This document shows, one piece after another, positions 12,601 to 38,178 of a DNA stretch of 38,178 bases. The notes beneath the pieces were generated by a model. That model saw only the letters and a program-made list of their open reading frames with translations. It did no database searches and was not told where the DNA came from. Origin of the DNA: a virus. The stretch covers positions 1 to 38,178 of the IMG/VR virus record IMGVR_UViG_3300042430_001758; one strand, written 5' to 3'. Each line of letters starts with the position of its first letter. Position 1 is the stretch's first letter. A program made the translations under genes and the position numbers.

Positions 12601-14091
12601 GTTGGCACATACAAATTCTATTTCTTTGTAGTCACTTTTGCCCGAGCCCTCTGCCAAGGCTTTCTTGTCAAACATGCCAGGATTCTGTTCACCATAACTA
12701 CGCATCAACACACCAGCTTTAGCATTGGCTTCATTTTCCCATTCACTGCCAGTGTCGCCAGCATGATACGGCATGGGTTCAATTTCGTCTTGACGGCGAT
12801 GCACTAACTCATGTGCTAGTGTACGCATGATATCCATGGGATGACGATTGGCCACAGATAATACTAATGTTTTAATCTCAGGGATATAACGCCCAAATGT
12901 AGCATTACGCTTTGACCATTCTGGATCTCGCTTTAATTGAATCTTAGGAGGATTCTCTATGCCTAATTTCTCACTGCAAAATGCAGCAAACTTTTCTAAC
13001 TGTGCTTGTATATTGTCAGCACCTTCGTTTACTTTAAATTCTGTTTCGCGATCCAGTTTCTTGCCAGCTGGGTCAATATCGTGTGTCTTTAGTCCTAGTC
13101 TTTCTAACTTCTTGATATACTTGTGTTCTAAAGGTTCGCTGCCAAAATTTATGATAGTCTGTGGTGCGCCTTGACCGTACATCTTGGGATTAGCATGATC
13201 CAGGTCACTGATGTCTTGACCCAGCTTGTACCAGTCGTATGTGTCCGACACATCGACTAGCACAGTGCCTGCTGGCATTGTCGGCTTGGACTCAGGACCA
13301 GGCGGCTCTTCATTGGGATGCCAGTCTTCCATAGGATTAAGGTCTTTGAAACCAAACTTGAATGGTTTCTTTTCCTGGGTTTCGTCTACACTGAGTTCTC
13401 GATCTTTGGCAGCTAATCGTGCTGCCCGCAATTGATCTAGGGTGCCATTGCTGCGCAGTATTTTAAAGGCCAAATTCTCAGGCCCAAACTCACCTGTTTG
13501 ATCTAGACCAGCCTGTCTGAATTCGCGTACTTTTTTACTGAGTGTTTCTAGATGTCGGGTATCGCCGGATTTGATAGCAGCTTCGATACGTTGGCCTAGG
13601 TCTTCGTATTTGCTCTTTACTGAAATGTCGTCTACTTCAGGTTTACGTCTCTTGGGTACACTAATCCATTCGTTGTTGAGAACCGAATAAATGCCTTGAC
13701 TCTTTGGATCTTCGTTGGCGTTTTGTACATAAAGCTCTACATCATATCCGCCAATTTTGAAATTGTGTTGATCATTGTACTGATATTTTTTGGCATCAAA
13801 CAGTTCGCGATAAACTTCGCTGGCATCTGCCCGGGGCAAGTCTGCCACTAGATGTAAATCAATGTCGCTGTGATCTGTGTAGGTGTAAGCTGCGTTACTG
13901 CCACTAATAGTGATGTCTTTGACTTCTAAGTCTAGACCCAGAAACTCTTTGAAGTCTTCGGCAATGGCCAATAGTTTTTGGCGAACCTCGGGCAGGAGGT
14001 GCTCGTCTGATCCCCAAATACGTGGGTTAAGAGAGTTGTGAAATTTAATAGCATCGCTAAGGCGATAATCTTGTAGCTCTTTGATGTCCAT
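9688..14091 (-). CDS. 1467-residue multi-enzyme protein: nucleotidyltransferase, metallopeptidase, amidoligase, C-terminal repeats
   Basis: Domains in order. Residues ~55-125: nucleotidyltransferase of the pol-beta superfamily (GSNAAYTYTDHSDIDLHLV, 64-82; D76, D78 and D117/E119 as likely metal ligands). ~360-475: metallopeptidase with HELVH (427-431) and a downstream Glu near 452-454. ~483-660: two unrecognised modules (one YIPVNDKEARDPRYS). ~695-1140: amidoligase-like fold, with GFEAEL (697-702), FEPDGSLDADDD (945), EIVSPP (962), TGFHMSVSMP (995) and FRSAGGSNYFED. ~1212-1466: three related repeats. V/L/A-x-E|G/A sites fall between domains: VNE356|G, LAE481|G, VAE590|A, VKE658|G. The N-terminus MDIKELQDYR is not an MRxxEF leader. 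It sits with GNAT and glycosyltransferase genes. Role inferred: ejected effector precursor. Virulence-type tail or capsid protein is the alternative. Confidence 0.8.
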   Translation of the reverse strand: MDIKELQDYRLSDAIKFHNSLNPRIWGSDEHLLPEVRQKLLAIAEDFKEFLGLDLEVKDITISGSNAAYTYTDHSDIDLHLVADLPRADASEVYRELFDAKKYQYNDQHNFKIGGYDVELYVQNANEDPKSQGIYSVLNNEWISVPKRRKPEVDDISVKSKYEDLGQRIEAAIKSGDTRHLETLSKKVREFRQAGLDQTGEFGPENLAFKILRSNGTLDQLRAARLAAKDRELSVDETQEKKPFKFGFKDLNPMEDWHPNEEPPGPESKPTMPAGTVLVDVSDTYDWYKLGQDISDLDHANPKMYGQGAPQTIINFGSEPLEHKYIKKLERLGLKTHDIDPAGKKLDRETEFKVNEGADNIQAQLEKFAAFCSEKLGIENPPKIQLKRDPEWSKRNATFGRYIPEIKTLVLSVANRHPMDIMRTLAHELVHRRQDEIEPMPYHAGDTGSEWENEANAKAGVLMRSYGEQNPGMFDKKALAEGSGKSDYKEIEFVCANPEFPDATDPELQKQMHLGLQQIPGVIPLLQDQSEYSEGQCSLAAIYKDRSTRSQILKLAKQLGVQVDLEQPVSDDYVDRAIRGEHYGQQVVAEASGYIPVNDKEARDPRYSMAVTVDIKPGEPKRQAAKLGWKTTAAGTPPTARTNGLVEELTRKLQLVKEGLGFPLVSEQEQELEEVAMSPSALRSFANSEAAAGMKAGFEAELVFTGIGGDEEEGEWEADYSYDPRAYSLENIEDFFDSGDFAEGMTRQTKAALEQDYMEWYDQTLYDEFDAPVAVREWIQDNDWDEEDLIERALDDEYREDRVKEILAAMERRVKGTGTAADADLVEEYVGAEQEVERQLDERVEMAIAEQNSDFESALDEFRENWDRSESDWLRDRGWRSMSDIAYNFDVTWPHMTMTGGSSEGGFNEDAAQRLADDLADKLDVTTTVSTGYHGATRDTSTWIFEPDGSLDADDDANMPVEIVSPPMPLAKTLEILPKFFEWAEENGAYANSSTGFHMSVSMPEHEGNMLDYTKLALFLGDEYVLKQFGREANTYAKSAISKIRDKKGKVDAETVMSAMRKHLDQFASRALASPSGFGKYTSINPKSKYIEFRSAGGSNYFEDMDKIQNTLMRYARAMDIAMNPAADKPEYAKKLYKMLTDVKTQEITDPRTGTKRTEVVPGLDNDAIAVFSRFVAGELPKSELKGFIKKIQYSRDVARQKASGKVSTDYDPDGNYVIRSKDSEGKPQGSVLHRFSATGTSAAIEQAKQWIEARGIEKSSVHLAHVENVPAEILATAPTAPPTQTPQTDQLNAPVADDPRGNYVLRQREGAEGRGAVLHRFSAPNNRAAIEAAREWTTAQGIERRTVWLDHISGVPPEILNAAPIRATIGEPRPAFTEPRSNSIPEVPLDIAQNFPPIQTEPQNFPAAQQTGGEFSGEWKVVDGLNREVYRFSGVGNSQSDANRVAREWAQRTGFDGNLEVYPVMR

Positions 14092-14675
14092 TATGTATTT
14101 ATTCGAAAAGGTTTTGCAGTGGTAGATGGACCACGTCGCGAGTTAAGTTCAACCAAATTCCAATCCCAGTGCTGCCAATGTACAAACTGTGTCCCTATAC
14201 ACTTGTCACTGGGTTTGACTTCTGTTGCTTGAATACCTGCAATCAGCGCAGCAGCCTGTTGAGGATTTAGCGCATAGGCATGTGCACCTTTGCTCCAAGT
14301 TCCTGTGGTGCCTGTTTTAGTACCGCGATCTTGGTGAAATTTTTGTATACCTAGTGATAAATCTAACTGGGGCATAGGGCCTCTTACAACAGCATCAGTT
14401 TCCAATACAACAATGGGTTCATTTAACTCTATACATCTGTGCCATAATCGCCAATGGCTAAAAAAACAGCCTTGGGCTCCAGGACGTTGATATATTTTGG
14501 TATTGGGATTAAGATAAAGCCCTGCACGTTTATAGTCCGGGGCTGTTACAGCAGTGCCTAATGTGGCTGGGAATGGCTCTGCTGACCATCCCCATTTTTG
14601 ACAACTGGAGATGCAGTCTTGTAATAATTTTTTACTGTGATCAGTATCTAAAGTTATTATATAAGACCGCATCAA
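14091..14675 (-). CDS. Glycosyltransferase family 25-like protein
   Basis: 194 residues. MRSYIITLDTDHSKK at the start, GAQGCFFSHWRLWHRCIE in the middle, NEPIVVLETDAV (the acidic metal-binding motif) and GAHAYALNPQQAAALI match the GT25 (LPS galactosyltransferase) pattern. It would transfer a sugar from a nucleotide donor. Two consecutive Met codons begin the frame. It overlaps the 1467-aa gene as TAATG and follows another glycosyltransferase by 5 nt, so the two probably act on the same glycan or protein. Confidence 0.8.
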   Translation of the reverse strand: MMRSYIITLDTDHSKKLLQDCISSCQKWGWSAEPFPATLGTAVTAPDYKRAGLYLNPNTKIYQRPGAQGCFFSHWRLWHRCIELNEPIVVLETDAVVRGPMPQLDLSLGIQKFHQDRGTKTGTTGTWSKGAHAYALNPQQAAALIAGIQATEVKPSDKCIGTQFVHWQHWDWNLVELNSRRGPSTTAKPFRINT

Positions 14676-29556: not shown

Positions 29557-32163
29557 TTATCCTAAAATATTGGTTCTGGGGTATAGAATATATTTATCAA
29601 AGTCGTCGGTGAATGCGTAGGTATTTGCCGGCGCGATAAAATCTGTGCTTCCCCCATCAAAGTATGTGCCCAGTAGATCAGTGGGAGTGATATCAAAAGT
29701 GGTAGCTGCAGCCGGGTCTGGGATCCAGCGTCCAGATTCAACACTGTCGTCGTATGGCTCCCAAGCATAGGTCATTCTGCGATCTATTTCGTAGCGATCA
29801 GCTTTGAAATCAATCTTGTTTAGCTGATTGGCAAATTTCTGTTGTATATTATAGACCACTTGTCCACCCAGGCCAGGCTTGACATAAGCTATTACCCAGG
29901 CCGGAGTAAATCCTGGAACACGACCATCGGCTTGCTTGGATATCATCCATGTGGGCAGCATCGGACTAATTTGTCCCACTGTGTCAACCACCTGATCACG
30001 CATGTTAATCAGGCTGTTAGGGTATACAACATCAACTGAAGTGCTGTCGTCCAGTTCTACTGCATAAGGCAAGGTTATTTCTTTGCTGACACTTTGTCCC
30101 TCGGCGTTGACCTGGTCGTCGATAATTCTACTGTACACTGCTTCGTATATAACTTCTCCTGCAGCATTTCTCGCCTGGGCATATTCAACTGGGCCAAGAA
30201 TGAGATTTTTCCAGTAATGATTGATTTCCAATGCTGCCACATAGCTTTCTAAACTGGCAGCATTTAGACCAAATGCATGATCGTATACTACACTGCTTGC
30301 TACTCCAAAGTTTGGATCATCATTGCGATACACCATGTCCACTGGAATGATGTCTTGGTTAAGTATCAGCTGATCGATCAATGCACGGTCTGATTCTGAC
30401 GGCATGGCCTTGATATACAAGCCCTGATAAGGCTCGTTAAACAAGCGTATTACTTCCAATTCGAAGCGTCGATTTACTGATACTACATTTTTAATGGTGG
30501 CAATGTCAATTATTGATCGTGCGGCGGCAGCAGTACCGCCGCCGCCTGTGATGGTTATTGTGGGAACACCAATATAACCTCTGCCCATTTCGTCGATGGC
30601 AATGGCAGTAATAACTCCGCCAATTATGGTGACTGCTCCTGCAGTGGCTTGCACTGCTCCAACCACTGTAGGTGGTGCTGATATAGTGACAGTGGGAGTT
30701 GATGTATATCCGCTACCGCCGGATTGAACAACAATTGCCGATACTTTATATCCTGGTTGCTCCGAAGCAGGAGCATAGGCATTCACTGTAAATCTAAAAA
30801 CCATATCAAATGTAGTTTCTTTATTGATTGATCTGGTGCGTATGTTTTTATCGAAAGTGGTATAACCAGTGTCGACTGCAAAAGTGTTGAAACTGACACG
30901 CCCAACTAGGTTTCCAGTTGCAGTTAATCTTAGCCCCTGTGGTAATTTGCTATTGCTGCCCTGTACCAATCGGTACGACAGATCTCTACCAGCAGCATTG
31001 ACAGCTTGCACACTTATGGTGCTTATCGCGCCATTGTTGATTGTGCCTAGATCAGGATCGGTTAACCAAACTACGTCGGTTTCCACTGCACCAATGATGG
31101 TTAGAGTAAACAGTTTGGTATCTGAAATAACAGTGACGTCAGCGGCTTTTCTAACACGCACACCAAATTGATAGGTGTTTTCTGTTGCGCCTTGATCTGG
31201 AATGTAGCCATAAAACCAACCGGTATTGATATTGAGCACAAGGCCAGGCGGCAAACTAGATGACCCCACTGCAACAGAAACATATTCAATTGGATCACCG
31301 TCGAAGTCAATCCCTTCGAACTTGAATGCGTAAAAATTGTCAGATCTTACTTGTCCAAGATCTCCTGACTCTGTCAGTAATACAGGTGTTCTTGTTGGTG
31401 TTACATCAGCTGTAACAAATGTATTGTCCGCTGTGATATTGGTATTGTCAGCCGACAATTCATTGACACTGTAAACATAGATTTCAAAAATTCTAACGTT
31501 GGAATTTTTACCGTCGGTGATTTCCACTGCAAATTGATAGTTCTTGCTCAATGCCCGTGTTGAGAAATCAAATTCGTACTGATCAAACTCAGTGATGTCG
31601 TAACCGGCTGTTGCTGTACCCGGAGGTCCTGTCAGCGGTGCAATAGCACCTGATATCAATCCAGTAACTGGATTCAATACCAGCCCAGGTGGTAATGCAC
31701 CCGACAGCACAGACAATCTTAGATTATCATCGACGTCGGCATCAGTAAACAAAAGTTGTATACTGGCTTCGGTACCGTCGTAGAAAGTACCGATATTTCC
31801 TGCAGGGGTTATAAACTCCGGAACATCTTGGCCAGTGATGGTGAGTGTAAATGTTCTGTCATTCAATCGATCTACTAAAATTACACCATTGACTACCTTG
31901 GTAGTATAGGCACGTATGGCAAATTTGCTGACAACGTCTTGGTTGACTTCAGTGGGTACTCCCTGCACATTGATTATGTTTCTGGGTACACCTTCAATTA
32001 TGCCGCTATTGGTAATTTGCACGCCGTTGGGTAATTCTCCGGCTATGACCTGATAAAAAACATCCTCAATGCCGGCTGTGGCTGTTACTTCGATGCTGTA
32101 AAAAACACCTTCTGGAATGGTTCCTAAACTGCCAGCAGGAGTAATCCACTGTGGTTGTGCCAT
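29557..32163 (-). CDS. Large tail/baseplate protein with Ig-like (He_PIG) domains
   Basis: 868 residues. At least four Ig-like repeats of the He_PIG kind are visible, with the signature LPPGLVLNxxTGxxxG (ALPPGLVLNPVTGLISG near 155, SLPPGLVLNINTGWFYG near 305, KLPQGLRLTATGNLVG near 405) and an N-terminal one (ELPNGVQITNSGIIEG). Residues ~485-560 hold two GxGYxxxPTVTI strands rich in Gly. The last 270 residues are non-repetitive. Such proteins form fibres or baseplate parts that contact the host surface. Neighbours are tail-type genes. Confidence 0.8.
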   Translation of the reverse strand: MAQPQWITPAGSLGTIPEGVFYSIEVTATAGIEDVFYQVIAGELPNGVQITNSGIIEGVPRNIINVQGVPTEVNQDVVSKFAIRAYTTKVVNGVILVDRLNDRTFTLTITGQDVPEFITPAGNIGTFYDGTEASIQLLFTDADVDDNLRLSVLSGALPPGLVLNPVTGLISGAIAPLTGPPGTATAGYDITEFDQYEFDFSTRALSKNYQFAVEITDGKNSNVRIFEIYVYSVNELSADNTNITADNTFVTADVTPTRTPVLLTESGDLGQVRSDNFYAFKFEGIDFDGDPIEYVSVAVGSSSLPPGLVLNINTGWFYGYIPDQGATENTYQFGVRVRKAADVTVISDTKLFTLTIIGAVETDVVWLTDPDLGTINNGAISTISVQAVNAAGRDLSYRLVQGSNSKLPQGLRLTATGNLVGRVSFNTFAVDTGYTTFDKNIRTRSINKETTFDMVFRFTVNAYAPASEQPGYKVSAIVVQSGGSGYTSTPTVTISAPPTVVGAVQATAGAVTIIGGVITAIAIDEMGRGYIGVPTITITGGGGTAAAARSIIDIATIKNVVSVNRRFELEVIRLFNEPYQGLYIKAMPSESDRALIDQLILNQDIIPVDMVYRNDDPNFGVASSVVYDHAFGLNAASLESYVAALEINHYWKNLILGPVEYAQARNAAGEVIYEAVYSRIIDDQVNAEGQSVSKEITLPYAVELDDSTSVDVVYPNSLINMRDQVVDTVGQISPMLPTWMISKQADGRVPGFTPAWVIAYVKPGLGGQVVYNIQQKFANQLNKIDFKADRYEIDRRMTYAWEPYDDSVESGRWIPDPAAATTFDITPTDLLGTYFDGGSTDFIAPANTYAFTDDFDKYILYPRTNILG

Positions 32164-32164
32164 G

Positions 32165-32425
32165 TTAGAATGATAATCCTAATACTCGTTTCCAGATATC
32201 GCTGGACCCGTCATAGTCGCCGTAGCAATAGTAAAAATAATTGGTGTCATAGGCATACATTCCAGCGGTGTCACCGACGGTACCTAATGATGTGCTGGGA
32301 ACAGTTTCTTGAGTGCGGCTGCTCAGCTCAGCAAAGTTTATGTTGCATTTTTGAAATGCAGTTCGGATTGGATCTCCTAATCCGTCGTTGGGTACTGCCC
32401 CTATATTAATTGTTTCAAGTGTCAT
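32165..32425 (-). CDS. Small tail-associated protein
   Basis: 86 residues. ETINIGAVPNDGLGDPIRTA followed by FQKCNINFAELSSR is the short N-terminal module typical of T4-like fibre and baseplate proteins; the rest is Tyr/Gly/Asp-rich (YFYYCYGDYDGSSDIW). It is first in the tail operon, with an AGAGG ribosome site and a late promoter box upstream. Confidence 0.75.
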   Translation of the reverse strand: MTLETINIGAVPNDGLGDPIRTAFQKCNINFAELSSRTQETVPSTSLGTVGDTAGMYAYDTNYFYYCYGDYDGSSDIWKRVLGLSF

Positions 32426-32605: not shown

Positions 32606-32836
32606 ATGGACAAAGCGTTTGATATGGTAAGCGGTTTCTTGGGTCGTGTCTGTGACATTGGTGTCAAGTTGATCGCAGTTGGTGTTGTACTTCAAATTTT
32701 ATTTGGAGCTGCAGTACCATTCTTAGGCATTGATGTTGTGGCTGGAGTTATTAAACTGGTTACTGCATTGGGTAGTCAAGGCCTAGTTGGCTTGGTTGCT
32801 GTTGCTGTGCTTTATTGGGCATTCAACAAAAAATAA
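32606..32836 (+). CDS. Small two-span membrane protein
   Basis: 76 residues. Hydrophobic segments at about 19-40 (VKLIAVGVVLQILFGAAVPF) and 53-72 (GSQGLVGLVAVAVLYWAF), a short amphipathic N-terminus and a KK end. It is very similar in build to class II holins and to small capsid or membrane proteins of aquatic phages; neither is proven. It stands alone on the plus strand with a strong AAGGAG site, a late-like box and its own terminator, which suggests high expression. Confidence 0.75.
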   Translation: MDKAFDMVSGFLGRVCDIGVKLIAVGVVLQILFGAAVPFLGIDVVAGVIKLVTALGSQGLVGLVAVAVLYWAFNKK

Positions 32837-33610: not shown

Positions 33611-35644
33611 TCATTTCAGCAGATCGATCCAATGATGTATTACATTTGACCAGTCATATTTTTGAGCATGAGTCTGTGTGCTGAGACATTTTTCTCTGTA
33701 GGCTTCGGGATTGGCCATGTAAAATTCCAACAGCTTGAGTGTTTCGTCCATAAATTCTGCTTCTTCCATGGGCACAGTATGTCCACTGTTGCCGCTCTTG
33801 GTAATCCATAAGCCCACAGATGTGCTGATCACCAACTTGCCAGCGGCACTGGCTTCTAGTGCCGGCAGTCCAGCACCTTCTTCTGTACTGGCAATGACTA
33901 CAGCATCCACTGATGGATAGAATCCTGGCATGGTAGTAAAACTGTTGTTGTAGGTCTGGGCCACTTTGAACTCCAGGCCAGTCCGTCGGCACAGTTCTTC
34001 TACCAACCAACCACGTTTGATACTACAGTGAGCTCTAGCAAGAAAAGCACCTGCAAAGCCAATGGTTTTGAGTTCCTGTGAAGGCTCGGCCACAAACTGT
34101 TGATAGTTGATGCCAATAGGAGTAAGATCTGGCGTTCTTTGTATGCCCATGGCTGCACTTTGTTCCACTAACCATTCACTGACCACGCTGTACCGGTGCA
34201 GGCGTTGTAGTGTTTCTTGTGAGTAGTCTTGTAGGTGTGTGAGATCCAGGATGGCATGCACCACGGCCACACACTTTTCTGGAGGAATACCATAGGTGTT
34301 CAATAGATATCCCAGACCATGCGGAGTGCTCACAAACAGATCCACGTGAGCACTGAGTTCTTGTAGTTCCTGCACAGTATAAGGCTTGTTCCAAGGCACC
34401 ACAGTGGCATTGACACCGGCGGCAAACAAGTACTTGACCAATTCATAGTGTATGGCGCCAAAGGCCCATTCTGGTTCAATAAAGAACATGATATTCTTTT
34501 TGACTGGATGAGCAATCAAGGGATAATCTTTTTTGAGCCAATCAATGTTTTCTCTTTCAGGATGTGGTTCATACCAACCTTTGCCTTTATAAACGTCCAT
34601 CACACTCTGGAAATATTCTTCATACATGGGTGCCACCTGATCTAGGGTAAAATTTTCAGCCCAGGTTCTGCAATCTTGAGGACGTATAAGGTCGATGTTT
34701 TCGGCGGCCCACACAAACTGATCAAAGGTTCTACAACGATATCCTGTGACTCCGTGTATGTTGTTTTCTGTAAAACTGCCCCAGTCAGTGGTAATAGTGG
34801 GTGTGCCACTCATCAACAATTCAATCTGCACACCGCCAAACGGCTCCACATATTGGCTGGCCACAAATGCAGCCCGGGCATTGCTCATGAGTTCCCGGCG
34901 TTTAGCCACATCGGCATAACCTACAAATTCCACGTGCGGAGGAAAGGTTCTGTTTTCCGGATTCTGTCCGGCAATGACCAATCTGGCACCAATTTTTTCT
35001 GTGACTTGAACAGCTATGTCTACACCTTTACCTGCATATACTCGACCTAAAAATAAAAAATAATCTTGTTTTTTCTCATTGTATTCAAAATCCTCTGGAT
35101 CAAAGTAGTTGGGTATCACACAGTCATACCAGTCTTGTTTGCAAGTGCCCACGGCTTCGAGTCCATAGTAGGCATGATATATGGCATAGCTTTCAAAGAT
35201 CTTCCACCGTGCCCAATGTCCGCCGGCATATCCAATGCCAGGCTCGACCACAATCATGTCTGAGTGGGCATCGCATACCGGGCGAGTTCCTGCTCCCCAA
35301 AAGGGCAGTATGAAGTCATTGGGTTGTTTGCGTAGTCCAACTTCGTGAATAGCATTCTTAAAGAAAGTTTGATACGCATGATCCGCCATGTCATATGTAA
35401 AGAAATTCTTACGCCAATCGTAATTACCGTAGGCTATTTTAAAGTCTTCGTTTGTAAGCACCGATACATGCTCAGTACATACCAAATCACTATCTTCGTG
35501 CCCATAGTGAATAACAGTATGACCTCGTTCGGTCATCATCTTGCCAAACTTGACCACTTTTTGCGTGTAAGCACAAGCATTGTATTCTTTACTGCTGACT
35601 GTGTGTGGAAGACCCAAGATATGAAAACGAAACTTATTACTCAT
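33611..35644 (-). CDS. Double GT-B glycosyltransferase
   Basis: 677 residues. The first half carries a GT4-like C-terminal domain: [18 protein letters not shown] (about 190-208), [20 protein letters not shown] and [19 protein letters not shown] with the E-x7-E donor site. The second half repeats the plan: [40 protein letters not shown] and [10 protein letters not shown]. So two GT-B modules are fused, perhaps to add two sugars in sequence. An AAAGGG ribosome site and a TATAAACA box (35661-35668) lie upstream. Confidence 0.85.
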
Positions 35645-35679: not shown

Positions 35680-36264
35680 TTACAGATTAAACACCACACT
35701 GGTTCTAGGTTCTGTACTTTGATTAGGTGGAACTTCGTGATACAACCAAGCTGGCCATAACAGCATCAGTCCTGGATAAGGTTTATATTGTGTTTTTTGC
35801 AAACTGTACCAATTGGGAGTTTCTTTGAGCATGAACATGTAGTCAAAAAAATCCTTAAAAGGTTGATTTGGATAAAATATAATTTCGCTTGACCCAGGAG
35901 GTGTCTTTAGATAATATATACCACTAATGGTGCAGCCGCTGTGCAAATGTTTGGGATGCGAACTGCCGTTGAGAAAACTGTTGGCAAAAAAATAAGGGCG
36001 CCACGGCACACGGCCGGCGTCAAATCCCTGCATCTCTAAGAAATCATAAGCCTTTTGTTTGGCAAAATCAATAAAAGGTGTAAACGCCGGATCATCCACT
36101 AGGCTTTTGGTACCATAGGTGGTTTCGCCATTGTAGTAAAAATTAGAATTGACATTTTTATCTGCCACGTTGAATATTTGATCCAACAAGGTATTCATTG
36201 GATCAATCCACTCGGGATGCTCGGACCGACCGATAACACTAGGAAACCAAAGATCAAGATGCAT
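35680..36264 (-). CDS. 2OG-Fe(II) oxygenase-like protein
   Basis: 194 residues. SHPKHLHSGCTISGIYYLKT (H106, H108), LLWPAWLYHEVPPN (H176) and EPRTSVVFNL (R187) fit the double-stranded beta-helix dioxygenase of the kind in aquatic phages; the first pair is HxH rather than HxD. Predicted to hydroxylate a substrate using 2-oxoglutarate. First gene downstream of its sister at 36268 (3 nt). Confidence 0.8.
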   Translation of the reverse strand: MHLDLWFPSVIGRSEHPEWIDPMNTLLDQIFNVADKNVNSNFYYNGETTYGTKSLVDDPAFTPFIDFAKQKAYDFLEMQGFDAGRVPWRPYFFANSFLNGSSHPKHLHSGCTISGIYYLKTPPGSSEIIFYPNQPFKDFFDYMFMLKETPNWYSLQKTQYKPYPGLMLLWPAWLYHEVPPNQSTEPRTSVVFNL

Positions 36265-36267
36265 GTG

Positions 36268-36789
36268 TTATTTGGTAAAAAATAGTTGAATACTCAGACG
36301 AGGAAATTCAGCTGCTAAAGTAATCATACTGGTGCTGTGCCACACAGGCGGCCGAAACCAGACCATTAAATTGGGATGCGGATAAACCCACCCTTGTCCT
36401 AAGTGCTGGTCGTCGTAGATAAAAAATCCGCCCCAATTCCAGTTCCATGCCTCGTTGATGTAGATAGTGCTGCTGAGTCGGTTGTAGGAATCATCGCTGT
36501 CGTGATGCCAATTGATTTGACTACCCGGCAGCCACACATGCATGAAACAGACTACATTGTTGAATTCAGCAAATACAGGATCAACTGTTTTGTATCGATT
36601 GATAAAATAATCAGCATATTCATCCAATTTCAATACCAAAACAGGTGCATAGCTGCCAGCTTCCAAGCCCTTGCCCCACCGACCCATGTGATTTATTTCA
36701 AATACACCTTGTCCGTGTGCATCCTCAAACTTTTTTCTAAGTGCCAACAGCATGTTTTGATCTAAAAAATTAGGAACCTGATTAATCAT
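36268..36789 (-). CDS. 2OG-Fe(II) oxygenase
   Basis: 173 residues. INWHHDSDDSYN supplies HxD (H95, D97), RPPVWHSTSMIT the distal His (H151), and PRLSIQLFF the 2OG-binding Arg (R164). Length and order match prolyl-hydroxylase-like dioxygenases. It sits between two further oxygenases on one transcript. Substrate unknown; amino-acid side chains or glycan components are both plausible. Confidence 0.85.
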   Translation of the reverse strand: MINQVPNFLDQNMLLALRKKFEDAHGQGVFEINHMGRWGKGLEAGSYAPVLVLKLDEYADYFINRYKTVDPVFAEFNNVVCFMHVWLPGSQINWHHDSDDSYNRLSSTIYINEAWNWNWGGFFIYDDQHLGQGWVYPHPNLMVWFRPPVWHSTSMITLAAEFPRLSIQLFFTK

Positions 36790-36799
36790 TTGATTTTTC

Positions 36800-37351
36800 T
36801 CAATATTGTGTAGTCAAAAAGAACAGTTGAAACAATCGTCCGTTTTGTAGGTCGGATCCAAAATAGTCAAGACTAGTGTGGAATAAATCGCTGCGGTACA
36901 TGGCCAACCGGTTGTATCGATTGCCAATACGGTCAATCAGATCCCACTTGGTCATGTCCTGCGATTCGTAGGATTCCAACTGATGCGACATGGTTGCGCC
37001 AGTTGCTTTGTGCCTAAAAAGCCCAGTTCCGCCTGTGTAAGGAGCGTCTGGTGTAAGATAACAAACCCCGGCCCAGGTGTTATAATGGTCAGTGTGTATC
37101 CAACTGCGATCAGCTGCTGTGGCTATTTCAAAACTGCCGGACAGGGCATCGGCTTGATTCCAATCGGTTACTTCACCTGCCACATTCCATAGTATGCTCT
37201 GCACAGCATCTTTGACATCTTGATTCAGGAAACTTTGTGTTCTTGAACCCGGAAAGTTTCCGCGAACCTTAAACTCCTGCTGCAAGGCAAAAGACCTGAC
37301 ACTGTCAGGATTGCTGTAAAAATCGTCGGTTATAATTGTGTTGGTTCTCAT
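36800..37351 (-). CDS. Third 2OG-Fe(II) oxygenase-like protein (DUF6445-like)
   Basis: 183 residues. RSWIHTDHYNTWAGVCYLT carries HxD (H86, D88), MYRSDLFHTSLDYF the distal His (H158) and NGRLFQLFF the Arg (R172). It starts MRTNTIITDDFYSNPDSVRS, as in DUF6445-type proteins. The ATG falls exactly at the predicted +1 of a perfect TATAAATA late box, with no ribosome site. Confidence 0.8.
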   Translation of the reverse strand: MRTNTIITDDFYSNPDSVRSFALQQEFKVRGNFPGSRTQSFLNQDVKDAVQSILWNVAGEVTDWNQADALSGSFEIATAADRSWIHTDHYNTWAGVCYLTPDAPYTGGTGLFRHKATGATMSHQLESYESQDMTKWDLIDRIGNRYNRLAMYRSDLFHTSLDYFGSDLQNGRLFQLFFLTTQY

Positions 37352-37416: not shown

Positions 37417-38178
37417 TTAAATTACATCGGACAAGACTTGCTCAATGCGTTGATACACCGAATACTGCCAATAATGGCTGGCCAGGCGATAATTTTCTTC
37501 AACATAAGGCAGCATACGGTTGTAGTCAGCTGGAGTGATTGTGGACAGTATATCTGCCAACTGTTCGATAGAATAGAACTGCAGTACACCGCGAACATCA
37601 AAGTACTTGCTCAAGTTGGTACAACCAAAATAAATTGGTACTGTTTTGGTTTTAAAACAATCAAGAATTTTTTCTGTAAACATGTTTGGCAAAATTTGAT
37701 TTTCACATGCAATATTAAACTTAGCATTGGTAAAAAAGTCGTTCTTGGATGGTACACGAGGCGGACTACGATGCATGAGAAATTCAAATTCCCCGATGTT
37801 TTTGTAATGACTGTAGCGTCGCATGATCATAAATCGCATGCGATGAGCATTGGTAAACACCTTGCTACTCATTAGATAGGATATCTGATTGTACTTGTTG
37901 ATAACAACATCGTCGGCAATCCAGGAGCCCACTGGACAAAATTCTCGAGCATTGGGTAATTTCAGCAGGCGTTCATCGTAGGTCAGTATCAAATCAAAGT
38001 GTTGATAGTTGTCCTGCACCATGCCTGCAAATCTATAATACAGCTCAGGAGGCTCGCATTGAACCAAGACATTGAAATCAGCACCGGGATCATATTGAAC
38101 AGTATCAAAACTCACACTGATTTTTTTTTCAAATCGTTGTGAGAATTGATATGTGCTATCAACACCATATCCCGGCAG
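37417..38178 (-). CDS. GT10 (fucosyltransferase)-like glycosyltransferase, 5' end cut by the window
   Basis: The frame is open to the window end (253 residues seen); a GTG at 38115 is internal, since 21 further codons stay open upstream. FNIACENQ, MFTEKILDCFKTKTVPIYFG and the following NLSKYFDVRGVLQF match the GT10 donor-site block (FENSxxxDYITEKL...VPIYxG). It would transfer fucose or a similar deoxysugar. A 65-nt gap with a late promoter separates it from the oxygenases. Confidence 0.8.
   Translation of the reverse strand: MPGYGVDSTYQFSQRFEKKISVSFDTVQYDPGADFNVLVQCEPPELYYRFAGMVQDNYQHFDLILTYDERLLKLPNAREFCPVGSWIADDVVINKYNQISYLMSSKVFTNAHRMRFMIMRRYSHYKNIGEFEFLMHRSPPRVPSKNDFFTNAKFNIACENQILPNMFTEKILDCFKTKTVPIYFGCTNLSKYFDVRGVLQFYSIEQLADILSTITPADYNRMLPYVEENYRLASHYWQYSVYQRIEQVLSDVI

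What the first reader, a model, noticed from the sequence alone, without database searches (positions are those of the whole stretch)
35680..37351. Three consecutive 2OG-Fe(II) oxygenases in a glycosylation island
Three diverged dioxygenases (HxH, HxD and HxD variants) lie side by side, flanked by a double GT-B, a GT10-like transferase and a methyltransferase. They may modify a phage surface protein or sugar in steps, for example hydroxylation followed by glycosylation of residues in fibres.
Basis: partly seen in the sequence, partly recalled or inferred. Interest (0 to 1): 0.55.

Follow-up and report, generated by a model that had tools for sequence, protein, structure and literature searches.

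The report
Phage tail-fibre hydroxylation and glycosylation cassette
This virus of bacteria carries a conserved block of three oxygen-using enzymes among sugar-transferring enzymes beside its tail-fibre genes, and relatives of one of the three sit next to collagen-like genes in bacteria, which suggests that the block chemically finishes the virus's fibres, perhaps collagen-like ones.

Summary
Window 35680-37351 (minus strand) holds three adjacent genes: OxA (36800-37351, DUF6445), OxB (36268-36789, PF13640) and OxC (35680-36264, PF13759). Their metal and 2OG residues are invariant: HxD..H..R in 71 of 71 OxA, HxD..H..R in 35 of 35 OxB, HxH..H..R in 47 of 47 OxC. Predicted OxA and OxB structures match protein prolyl hydroxylases best, though a shared fold does not prove function. 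The trio is contiguous in 26 of 53 usable de-duplicated relatives, beside GT10, GT4 and sugar-synthesis genes.

New link: searching bacterial genomes with OxA alone, 14 of the 16 closer loci carry a collagen-like gene within 6 kb. In ten genomes 352 of 354 (Gly-X-Gln)6 matches lie at the OxA locus. Many phage relatives also carry the block beside collagen-like tail fibres, but there the statistics are weak (p=0.40), and the window itself holds no collagen repeat; its record ends on that side.

Best reading: a cytosolic cassette that hydroxylates and glycosylates a tail-fibre protein, probably collagen-like. Substrate and residue are inferred. Host-glycan modification remains the main rival.

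The parts
36800..37351 (-). OxA: DUF6445-family 2OG-Fe(II) oxygenase, H86-x-D88, H158, R172
   Evidence: PF20043 4.8e-16; triad and Arg invariant in 71 of 71; AF2 pLDDT 94.9, VIA Z 14-15 to PiuC, PHD2, OGFOD1, P. putida P4H
36268..36789 (-). OxB: P4H-like 2OG-Fe(II) oxygenase, H95-x-D97, H151, R164
   Evidence: PF13640 1.6e-7; invariant in 35 of 35; AF2 pLDDT 91.4, VIA Z 17.7 to P. putida P4H; profile hits 9ei6, 9blq, 4nhx, 6t8m, 4iw3
35680..36264 (-). OxC: PF13759/TIGR02466 2OG-Fe(II) oxygenase with H106-x-H108, H176, R187
   Evidence: PF13759 4.7e-19, TIGR02466 74.6 bits over cut-off 62.5; invariant in 47 of 47; solved relatives 3bvc, 2rg4
37417..38178 (-). GT10 (fucosyltransferase-like), 5' end lost at the record edge
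   Evidence: PF00852 1.1e-6; precedes the first OxA in 27 of 52 de-duplicated relatives
33611..35644 (-). Double GT-B (GT4 + second GT) in one protein
   Evidence: PF13692/PF00534 two stretches; phrog_3408 at 1-359, phrog_18799 at 402-676; N half belongs to the relatives' island GT4 family, 343 bits
32923..33516 (-). Class I methyltransferase-like protein
   Evidence: Methyltransf_12/23 and TehB only below Pfam cut-offs
32165..32425 (-). Short ORF like the N-terminus of fibre/baseplate connectors
   Evidence: phrog_677 1.5e-5, phrog_8859 5.2e-7; homologous ORFs near the OxA island in 13 loci
29557..32163 (-). 868-aa Ig-like (He_PIG) fibre-type protein, candidate substrate in this record
   Evidence: PF05345 6e-15; tail-fibre PHROG 2.4e-16

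Best explanation
The trio is the oxidative part of a soluble, phage-encoded protein-finishing cassette. OxA and OxB, and probably OxC, hydroxylate side chains of a tail-fibre protein with Fe(II), O2 and 2-oxoglutarate. GT4 and GT10 enzymes then glycosylate the fibre, in relatives with a deoxysugar made by their own Gmd and DegT-like genes. The likely substrate of OxA is a collagen-like Gly-X-Y fibre, because OxA's bacterial relatives are coupled to collagen-like genes. Shown: conserved block, invariant active-site residues, folds, genomic position, bacterial linkage. Inferred: catalysis, substrate, residue, order of steps and donor sugar.
For: Invariant catalytic residues. Best structural matches are mostly protein prolyl hydroxylases: P. 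putida P4H (EF-Tu), PHD2, OGFOD1, Dictyostelium PHD. The trio genes are nearly gapless in most relatives and no island protein examined has a strong hydrophobic segment by Kyte-Doolittle, max 1.37. Relatives add Gmd, DegT-like and hexapeptide transferase genes. Fibre neighbours: collagen-like gene directly upstream of the island in 12 of 38 representative loci that hold an upstream gene, elsewhere in the locus in 7 more. Isolates: DSL-LC02 has GT, methyltransferase and OxA between collagen-like and tail-fibre genes; ACG-2014f has oxygenase and GT between a tail fibre and a collagen triple-helix gene. Bacteria: of 20 OxA relatives, 14 of the 16 closer ones (38% identity or more) have a collagen-like gene within 6 kb, none of the 4 more distant; 352 of 354 (GxQ)6 matches of ten 5-8 Mb genomes lie there.
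Against: The window has no Gly-X-Y run of 6 or more triplets in any frame. In phages anchored on gp14, collagen upstream is not significantly commoner with OxA (11 of 14 groups) than without (7 of 12; p=0.40). GPQ collagens are no likelier than GTQ collagens to have an oxygenase nearby. Some OxA loci lie among non-fibre genes: S-SSM7, Sf-FS3, L053, L055-L058. One large record has OxA 101 kb from collagen. A T4 late-promoter motif is not conserved at the island (1 of 71 OxA, 2 of 34 GT4). In bacteria a radical SAM maturase and a small protein share the locus, so the collagen may not be OxA's substrate.
Confidence: 0.5

Rival explanations
1. The island modifies the infected host's surface polysaccharide (O antigen or capsule), for example to exclude other phages; the oxygenases tailor sugars or lipids of that glycan.
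For: This is the published reading of related islands: glycosyltransferases in pelagimyophage host-recognition clusters (PMC7029224, passages) and cyanophage GT clusters with 2OGFeDO genes read as capsule/O-antigen or secondary-metabolite systems (PMC7824862, passages). S-SSM7 and Sf-FS3 keep OxA among nucleotide-sugar, GT11 and GT25 genes away from fibres.
Against: No membrane-embedded polymerase, flippase or Gtr-like protein was seen in the island proteins examined (hydropathy). OxA and OxB fold like protein hydroxylases. OxA is coupled to collagen-like genes in bacteria.
Confidence: 0.2
2. The virion is glycosylated by the island, but the oxygenases act on the sugar (oxidation, epimerisation or hydroxylation of the deoxysugar) rather than on the protein.
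For: Gmd, DegT-like and hexapeptide genes show a tailored deoxysugar pathway in relatives. Sugar- or glycoside-modifying 2OG enzymes such as HygX and SnoN are among OxA's structural matches. Thr-rich collagens beside distant OxA already have hydroxyls.
Against: The bacterial OxA-collagen loci whose neighbours were scanned encode a PP-loop protein and a radical SAM maturase rather than a nucleotide-sugar pathway.
Confidence: 0.17
3. The oxygenases hydroxylate a host protein such as a translation factor, as P. putida P4H does with EF-Tu, and only happen to lie beside glycosylation genes.
For: OxB's best fold match is P. putida P4H, solved with EF-Tu.
Against: The conserved coupling with GT10 and GT4 genes and the nearly gapless spacing.
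Confidence: 0.07
4. The enzymes hypermodify phage DNA (oxidation followed by glucosylation).
For: Phages use base oxidation and glycosylation in other systems (recalled).
Against: Folds match protein prolyl hydroxylases best; the fibre position and the bacterial collagen linkage do not fit DNA modification.
Confidence: 0.03

Closest known systems
Mimivirus collagen modification (lysyl hydroxylase/glucosyltransferase L230; glucosyltransferase R699)
   Same: Virus-encoded 2OG oxygenase and glycosyltransferase acting on viral collagen (R699: abstract read; bifunctional enzyme: its title in a reference list; the name L230 is recalled).
   Different: Giant virus of amoebae; hydroxylysine chemistry. 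The phage collagen triplets counted here have almost no lysine, and the phage oxygenases are of other families.
Bacillus anthracis prolyl 4-hydroxylase and the glycosylated collagen-like protein BclA
   Same: Bacterial P4H that hydroxylates collagen-like peptides at both X and Y positions; BclA is glycosylated (review passages).
   Different: Host exosporium rather than virion; no DUF6445 or PF13759 partner is mentioned in the passages read.
Pseudomonas putida prolyl 4-hydroxylase (PPHD, 4j25/4iw3)
   Same: Closest fold to OxB, VIA Z 17.7, 2.8 A over 163 residues, 19% identity.
   Different: Solved with EF-Tu; no glycosyltransferase coupling is known to me.
Dictyostelium Skp1 pathway (prolyl hydroxylase PhyA, 6t8m, then cytosolic glycosyltransferases)
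   Same: Cytosolic proline hydroxylation followed by glycosylation of the hydroxyproline (recalled); 6t8m is a fold match of OxB.
   Different: Single target proline in a host protein; eukaryote.
PF13759/TIGR02466 proteins 3bvc and 2rg4
   Same: Closest solved relatives of OxC (3e-20 and 2.3e-18); the HxH motif is shared in the 3bvc alignment.
   Different: Uncharacterised bacterial proteins.
Burkholderiales collagen-like/PP-loop/OxA/radical SAM loci
   Same: OxA relatives at 42-46% identity in Pandoraea, Paraburkholderia, Roseateles and Massilia loci beside a collagen-like gene.
   Different: Chromosomal; with a cyclophane-type radical SAM maturase and a PP-loop protein instead of GTs.

Membership tests
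2OG-Fe(II) oxygenase superfamily (OxA, OxB) | Double-stranded beta-helix fold | tested here: met
   AF2 models matched to 2OG oxygenases; VIA best Z 14.8 (OxA) and 17.7 (OxB)
2OG-Fe(II) oxygenase superfamily (OxA, OxB) | HxD/E...H iron triad and 2OG-binding Arg | tested here: met
   Invariant in 71 of 71 and 35 of 35 sequences
2OG-Fe(II) oxygenase superfamily (OxC) | Canonical HxD/E...H triad | tested here: not met
   HxH...H in 47 of 47; the same HxH is in solved relative 3bvc, so it looks like a family trait of PF13759-type proteins rather than damage
2OG-Fe(II) oxygenase superfamily | Catalytic activity with 2OG, Fe(II) and O2 | not testable with these tools
   No assay
DUF6445 (PF20043), OxA | Score over curated cut-off | tested here: met
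   59.8 bits against 24
2OG-FeII_Oxy_5 / TIGR02466, OxC | Score over curated cut-off | tested here: met
   69.1 against 27; 74.6 against 62.5
Protein prolyl 4-hydroxylase (OxB) | Fold and profile similarity to P4H enzymes | tested here: met
   PF13640 over cut-off; 9ei6 8e-7; 4j25_F Z 17.7
Protein prolyl 4-hydroxylase (OxB) | Hydroxylation of peptidyl proline | not testable with these tools
   No assay; the fold alone does not show the substrate
Viral collagen hydroxylation-glycosylation system | Collagen-like substrate encoded in the same virus | tested here: inconclusive
   None in the 38-kb record, which ends on the side where relatives carry it; present in 5 of 5 large related records
Viral collagen hydroxylation-glycosylation system | Hydroxylase and glycosyltransferase encoded together | tested here: met
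   GT10, OxA, OxB, OxC and double GT4 in one run of genes
T4-type late gene | Conserved late-promoter motif upstream of the island | tested here: not met
   1 of 71 OxA, 2 of 34 GT4; positive control 25 of 27 for a structural gene

The most novel reading that the evidence does not exclude
The OxA-like branch of DUF6445 is a dedicated family of collagen-like-protein oxygenases shared by phages and bacteria. Phages have built it, with OxB and OxC, into a hydroxylation-plus-glycosylation line for collagen-like tail fibres. Gln at Y is frequent in every OxA-linked collagen set counted (24-96% of triplets), whereas X varies between Pro, Thr, Ala, Val and Met, so Y-Gln or its Gly neighbour, not only proline, may be oxidised.
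Probability: 0.35. Interest if true: 0.8.

Novelty: new variant of a known kind. Interest (0 to 1): 0.6.

Why it matters
It gives a testable role to a Pfam family of unknown function that PHROGs names 'minor coat protein', and a concrete substrate guess drawn from bacterial genomes. If true, tailed phages finish collagen-like fibres chemically, as mimivirus finishes its collagen. A 2012 paper on phage collagens states that bacteria and viruses lack the prolyl hydroxylases for this (PMC3368898, passage). It would affect how phage adhesins are produced and studied.

Tried and rejected
Proline-collagen specificity: the pooled contrast within gp14-anchored phages was striking (X-Pro 66% with OxA, 5% without), but a broader scan did not support it (7 of 94 GPQ loci against 8 of 97 GTQ loci have an OxA/B/C/D-type oxygenase). 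Window-type OxA always accompanies X-Pro 0.44-0.93 (51 of 51 loci, not de-duplicated) and distant OxA X-Pro of 0.04 or less (4 of 4; L150 likewise). This co-variation is confounded with phage lineage and is not used as proof.

Late promoter: the exact TATAAATA 5 bases before OxA in the window is not conserved and not above chance.

The PHROG labels 'minor coat protein' (OxA) and 'DNA endonuclease V' (OxB) were rejected as likely annotation carry-over. DUF6445 was in no paper of the library searched. No paper held 'phage', 'oxygenase', 'collagen', 'tail fiber' and 'glycosyltransferase' together (2012 on) except one on giant viruses. The searches returned nothing. Four papers were opened by passage and one by outline and abstract; none was read in full.

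A fold model of OxC was not made (2 of 2 jobs used on OxA and OxB).

Rows dropped: loci from one contig or sharing an exact 400-mer were merged, 133 to 74 groups; 2 of 55 OxA groups were too short for the order count; 1 GTQ locus (L386) was already in the GPQ set and was counted there; of the 120 and 119 scan loci, those with fewer than 10 triplets or under 4 kb were left out of the 94 and 97. The listings printed only part of their rows; all loci were analysed from the files. The composition pools were not filtered for antisense frames. An earlier count gave 51 usable loci for the order count; the right number is 53.

Full report
WHAT IS THERE. The window is a whole 38,178-base virus record with T4-type replication genes: DNA polymerase, clamp loader. 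The finding's span holds three genes transcribed right to left: OxA, OxB, OxC. Each belongs to a different Pfam family over its cut-off. Upstream lies a GT10 gene cut by the record end; downstream a 677-aa double GT4 and a weakly recognised methyltransferase, then a fibre-connector fragment and an 868-aa Ig-like fibre protein. The trio's gaps are 10 and 3 bases.

ARE THEY REAL OXYGENASES. In alignments of de-duplicated relatives the iron ligands and the 2OG arginine are invariant: OxA H86-x-D88, H158, R172 in 71 of 71; OxB H95-x-D97, H151, R164 in 35 of 35; OxC H106-x-H108, H176, R187 in 47 of 47 (roles of these residues by analogy with the superfamily). AlphaFold models of OxA and OxB have mean pLDDT 94.9 and 91.4. 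VIA-align places OxA at Z 14-15 to PiuC, PHD2, OGFOD1 and P. putida P4H, 2.4-3.0 A over 147-160 residues. It places OxB at Z 17.7 (2.8 A, 163 residues) to P. putida P4H, then PHD2 and others. Foldseek agrees for OxB and gives OxA a wider mix, with the okaramine enzyme OkaE first. A profile of OxB finds P4H-like solved proteins, including OGFOD1 and the Dictyostelium PHD. OxC has two solved but uncharacterised relatives, and 3bvc shares its HxH. A shared fold does not prove a substrate. PHROGs calls OxA a 'minor coat protein' and Pfam has it as unknown.

IS IT A CONSERVED BLOCK. Scans of viral contigs returned 80 kept loci for OxA (178 confirmed), 3 for OxB and 80 for OxC (85 confirmed). After merging, 55 OxA groups remained; of 53 with enough sequence, OxA-OxB-OxC is contiguous in 26, OxA is followed by a GT2 in 18, by a NUDIX gene in 4, by OxB without OxC in 4, and by something else in 1. 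GT10 precedes OxA in 27 of 52. Fuller islands run GT4, small gene, hexapeptide transferase, DegT-like, GDP-mannose dehydratase, unknown, GT10, one or two OxA, OxB, OxC. The window's double GT begins with the same GT4 family (343 bits). Some OxC relatives (L105-L131) lie without OxA or OxB in another gene context.

WHERE THE BLOCK SITS. The gene directly upstream of the island is collagen-like in 12 of 38 representative loci that hold an upstream gene; 7 more loci have a collagen-like gene elsewhere, and 17 further loci end before that gene. Others have fibres without Gly-X-Y, or non-fibre genes. In isolates, DSL-LC02 places GT, methyltransferase and OxA between collagen-like and tail-fibre genes. 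ACG-2014f places a 2OG oxygenase and the window-type GT between a tail fibre and a collagen triple-helix gene. S-WAM2 has OxA between a giant tail-fibre gene and neck genes. S-SSM7 and Sf-FS3 have it among nucleotide-sugar and fucosyltransferase genes.

TESTS OF THE COLLAGEN LINK IN PHAGES. Anchored on gp14 (38 loci with 4.5 kb upstream, 26 groups), collagen upstream was present in 11 of 14 OxA-positive and 7 of 12 OxA-negative groups, p=0.40. Five large records all carry collagen genes; OxA lies 3.2, 6.6 and 6.8 kb from one in three of them, but 15 and 101 kb in the other two. GPQ- and GTQ-collagen scans found an OxA/B/C/D-type oxygenase in 7 of 94 and 8 of 97 loci. So in phages the link is suggestive, not significant, and proline is not a general requirement.

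THE LINK IN BACTERIA. One scan of genome contigs with the OxA alignment returned 20 loci. Collagen-like repeats were seen in 13 of the 20 by frame scan, and in a fourteenth, Paraburkholderia, by eye: its contig begins in Gly-X-Gln repeats, separated from OxA by what looks like an inserted element. All 14 are among the 16 loci with 38% identity or more; the other two are a short phage-like contig (L522) and a Rhodobacteraceae contig (L533). None of the 4 more distant loci has one (14 of 16 against 0 of 4, hypergeometric p = 0.003, my arithmetic; two of the four hold only 2.4 and 0.2 kb upstream). In ten genomes with the (GxQ)6 DNA pattern, 352 of 354 matches lie in the OxA locus, with the array 0.2-1.7 kb from OxA; in two other genomes (L527, L536) the pattern was absent and their collagen-like genes, of other triplets, lie 4.4 and 2.6 kb away. 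The search was made with OxA only, so this coupling was not built in; eight of the ten genomes are Pandoraea, so the independent cases are fewer than ten. In the Pandoraea and Roseateles loci scanned a PP-loop protein lies between the two genes; a radical SAM maturase of the YhhB/FxsB type was identified in the Pandoraea locus. The collagen is therefore a likely, not a proven, substrate.

HOW IT MOST LIKELY WORKS. In the cytosol of the infected cell the oxygenases hydroxylate residues of newly made fibre chains before trimerisation, and GT4/GT10 add sugars from the phage-tailored deoxysugar pool; the fibre is stabilised or its surface changed. Shown: genes, residues, folds, order, linkage. Inferred: reaction, substrate, order, benefit. 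Y-position Gln is frequent in every OxA-linked set counted (bacterial 96%, OxA-only phages 54%, trio phages 39%, distant-OxA phages 66%, Poribacteria 74%, Ignavibacteria 24%), while X is mostly Pro, Thr, Ala, Val or Met. ACG-2014f, which has a different oxygenase, has only 6% Gln.

RIVALS AND NOVELTY. The published readings of related islands are host O-antigen or capsule change or secondary metabolites (PMC7029224, PMC7824862; passages). No membrane enzyme was evident by hydropathy in the island proteins examined, which leans against Gtr-like systems. Viral collagen hydroxylation and glycosylation is known in mimivirus, and bacterial P4H activity on collagen-like peptides and BclA glycosylation are known in B. 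anthracis (review passages). I found no paper in the library that names DUF6445, and the combined terms phage, oxygenase, collagen, tail fiber and glycosyltransferase returned only a giant-virus paper. I rate the system a new variant of a known kind, with a moderately supported substrate.

Noticed in passing
L524:3703-8146, L528:4495-8111 and the other Burkholderiales loci: Bacterial locus of a Gly-X-Gln collagen-like protein, PP-loop (WbuX/LarE-like) protein, OxA relative, in some loci a 116-120 aa protein, and (identified in L524) a YhhB/FxsB-type cyclophane radical SAM maturase: possibly an undescribed modification system for collagen-like proteins.
   Followed up: partly
L527:1788-6026: 1412-aa protein combining GT2, GT4, TPR and methyltransferase domains directly before OxA and after a collagen-like gene; resembles the window's GT and methyltransferase genes joined in one chain.
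   Followed up: no
L153:10699-12564: In S-SCSM2R the OxA homologue is the C-terminal part of a 621-aa protein annotated CcmH/NrfG.
   Followed up: no
L154 (S-SCSM1 58.8-83.3 kb): Six genes annotated as 2OG-Fe(II) oxygenases scattered among replication genes in one 24-kb stretch.
   Followed up: no
window 32606-32836 (+): 76-aa plus-strand ORF with a strong hydrophobic segment (Kyte-Doolittle 2.43), holin-like, between the methyltransferase and the fibre connector.
   Followed up: no
window 14091-14675 (-): 194-aa protein with a weak local match to a PHROG labelled 2OG-Fe(II) oxygenase (phrog_61, 1.6e-7, about 50 residues); not checked for a triad.
   Followed up: no
L028:3315-4004: DegT/DnrJ-type sugar aminotransferase homologue of only 229 aa, matching part of the 360-position profile; widespread in the islands.
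   Followed up: no
L018, L028, L030, L046 and others: Tandem duplication of OxA in many islands; the conserved residues hold in all copies aligned.
   Followed up: partly
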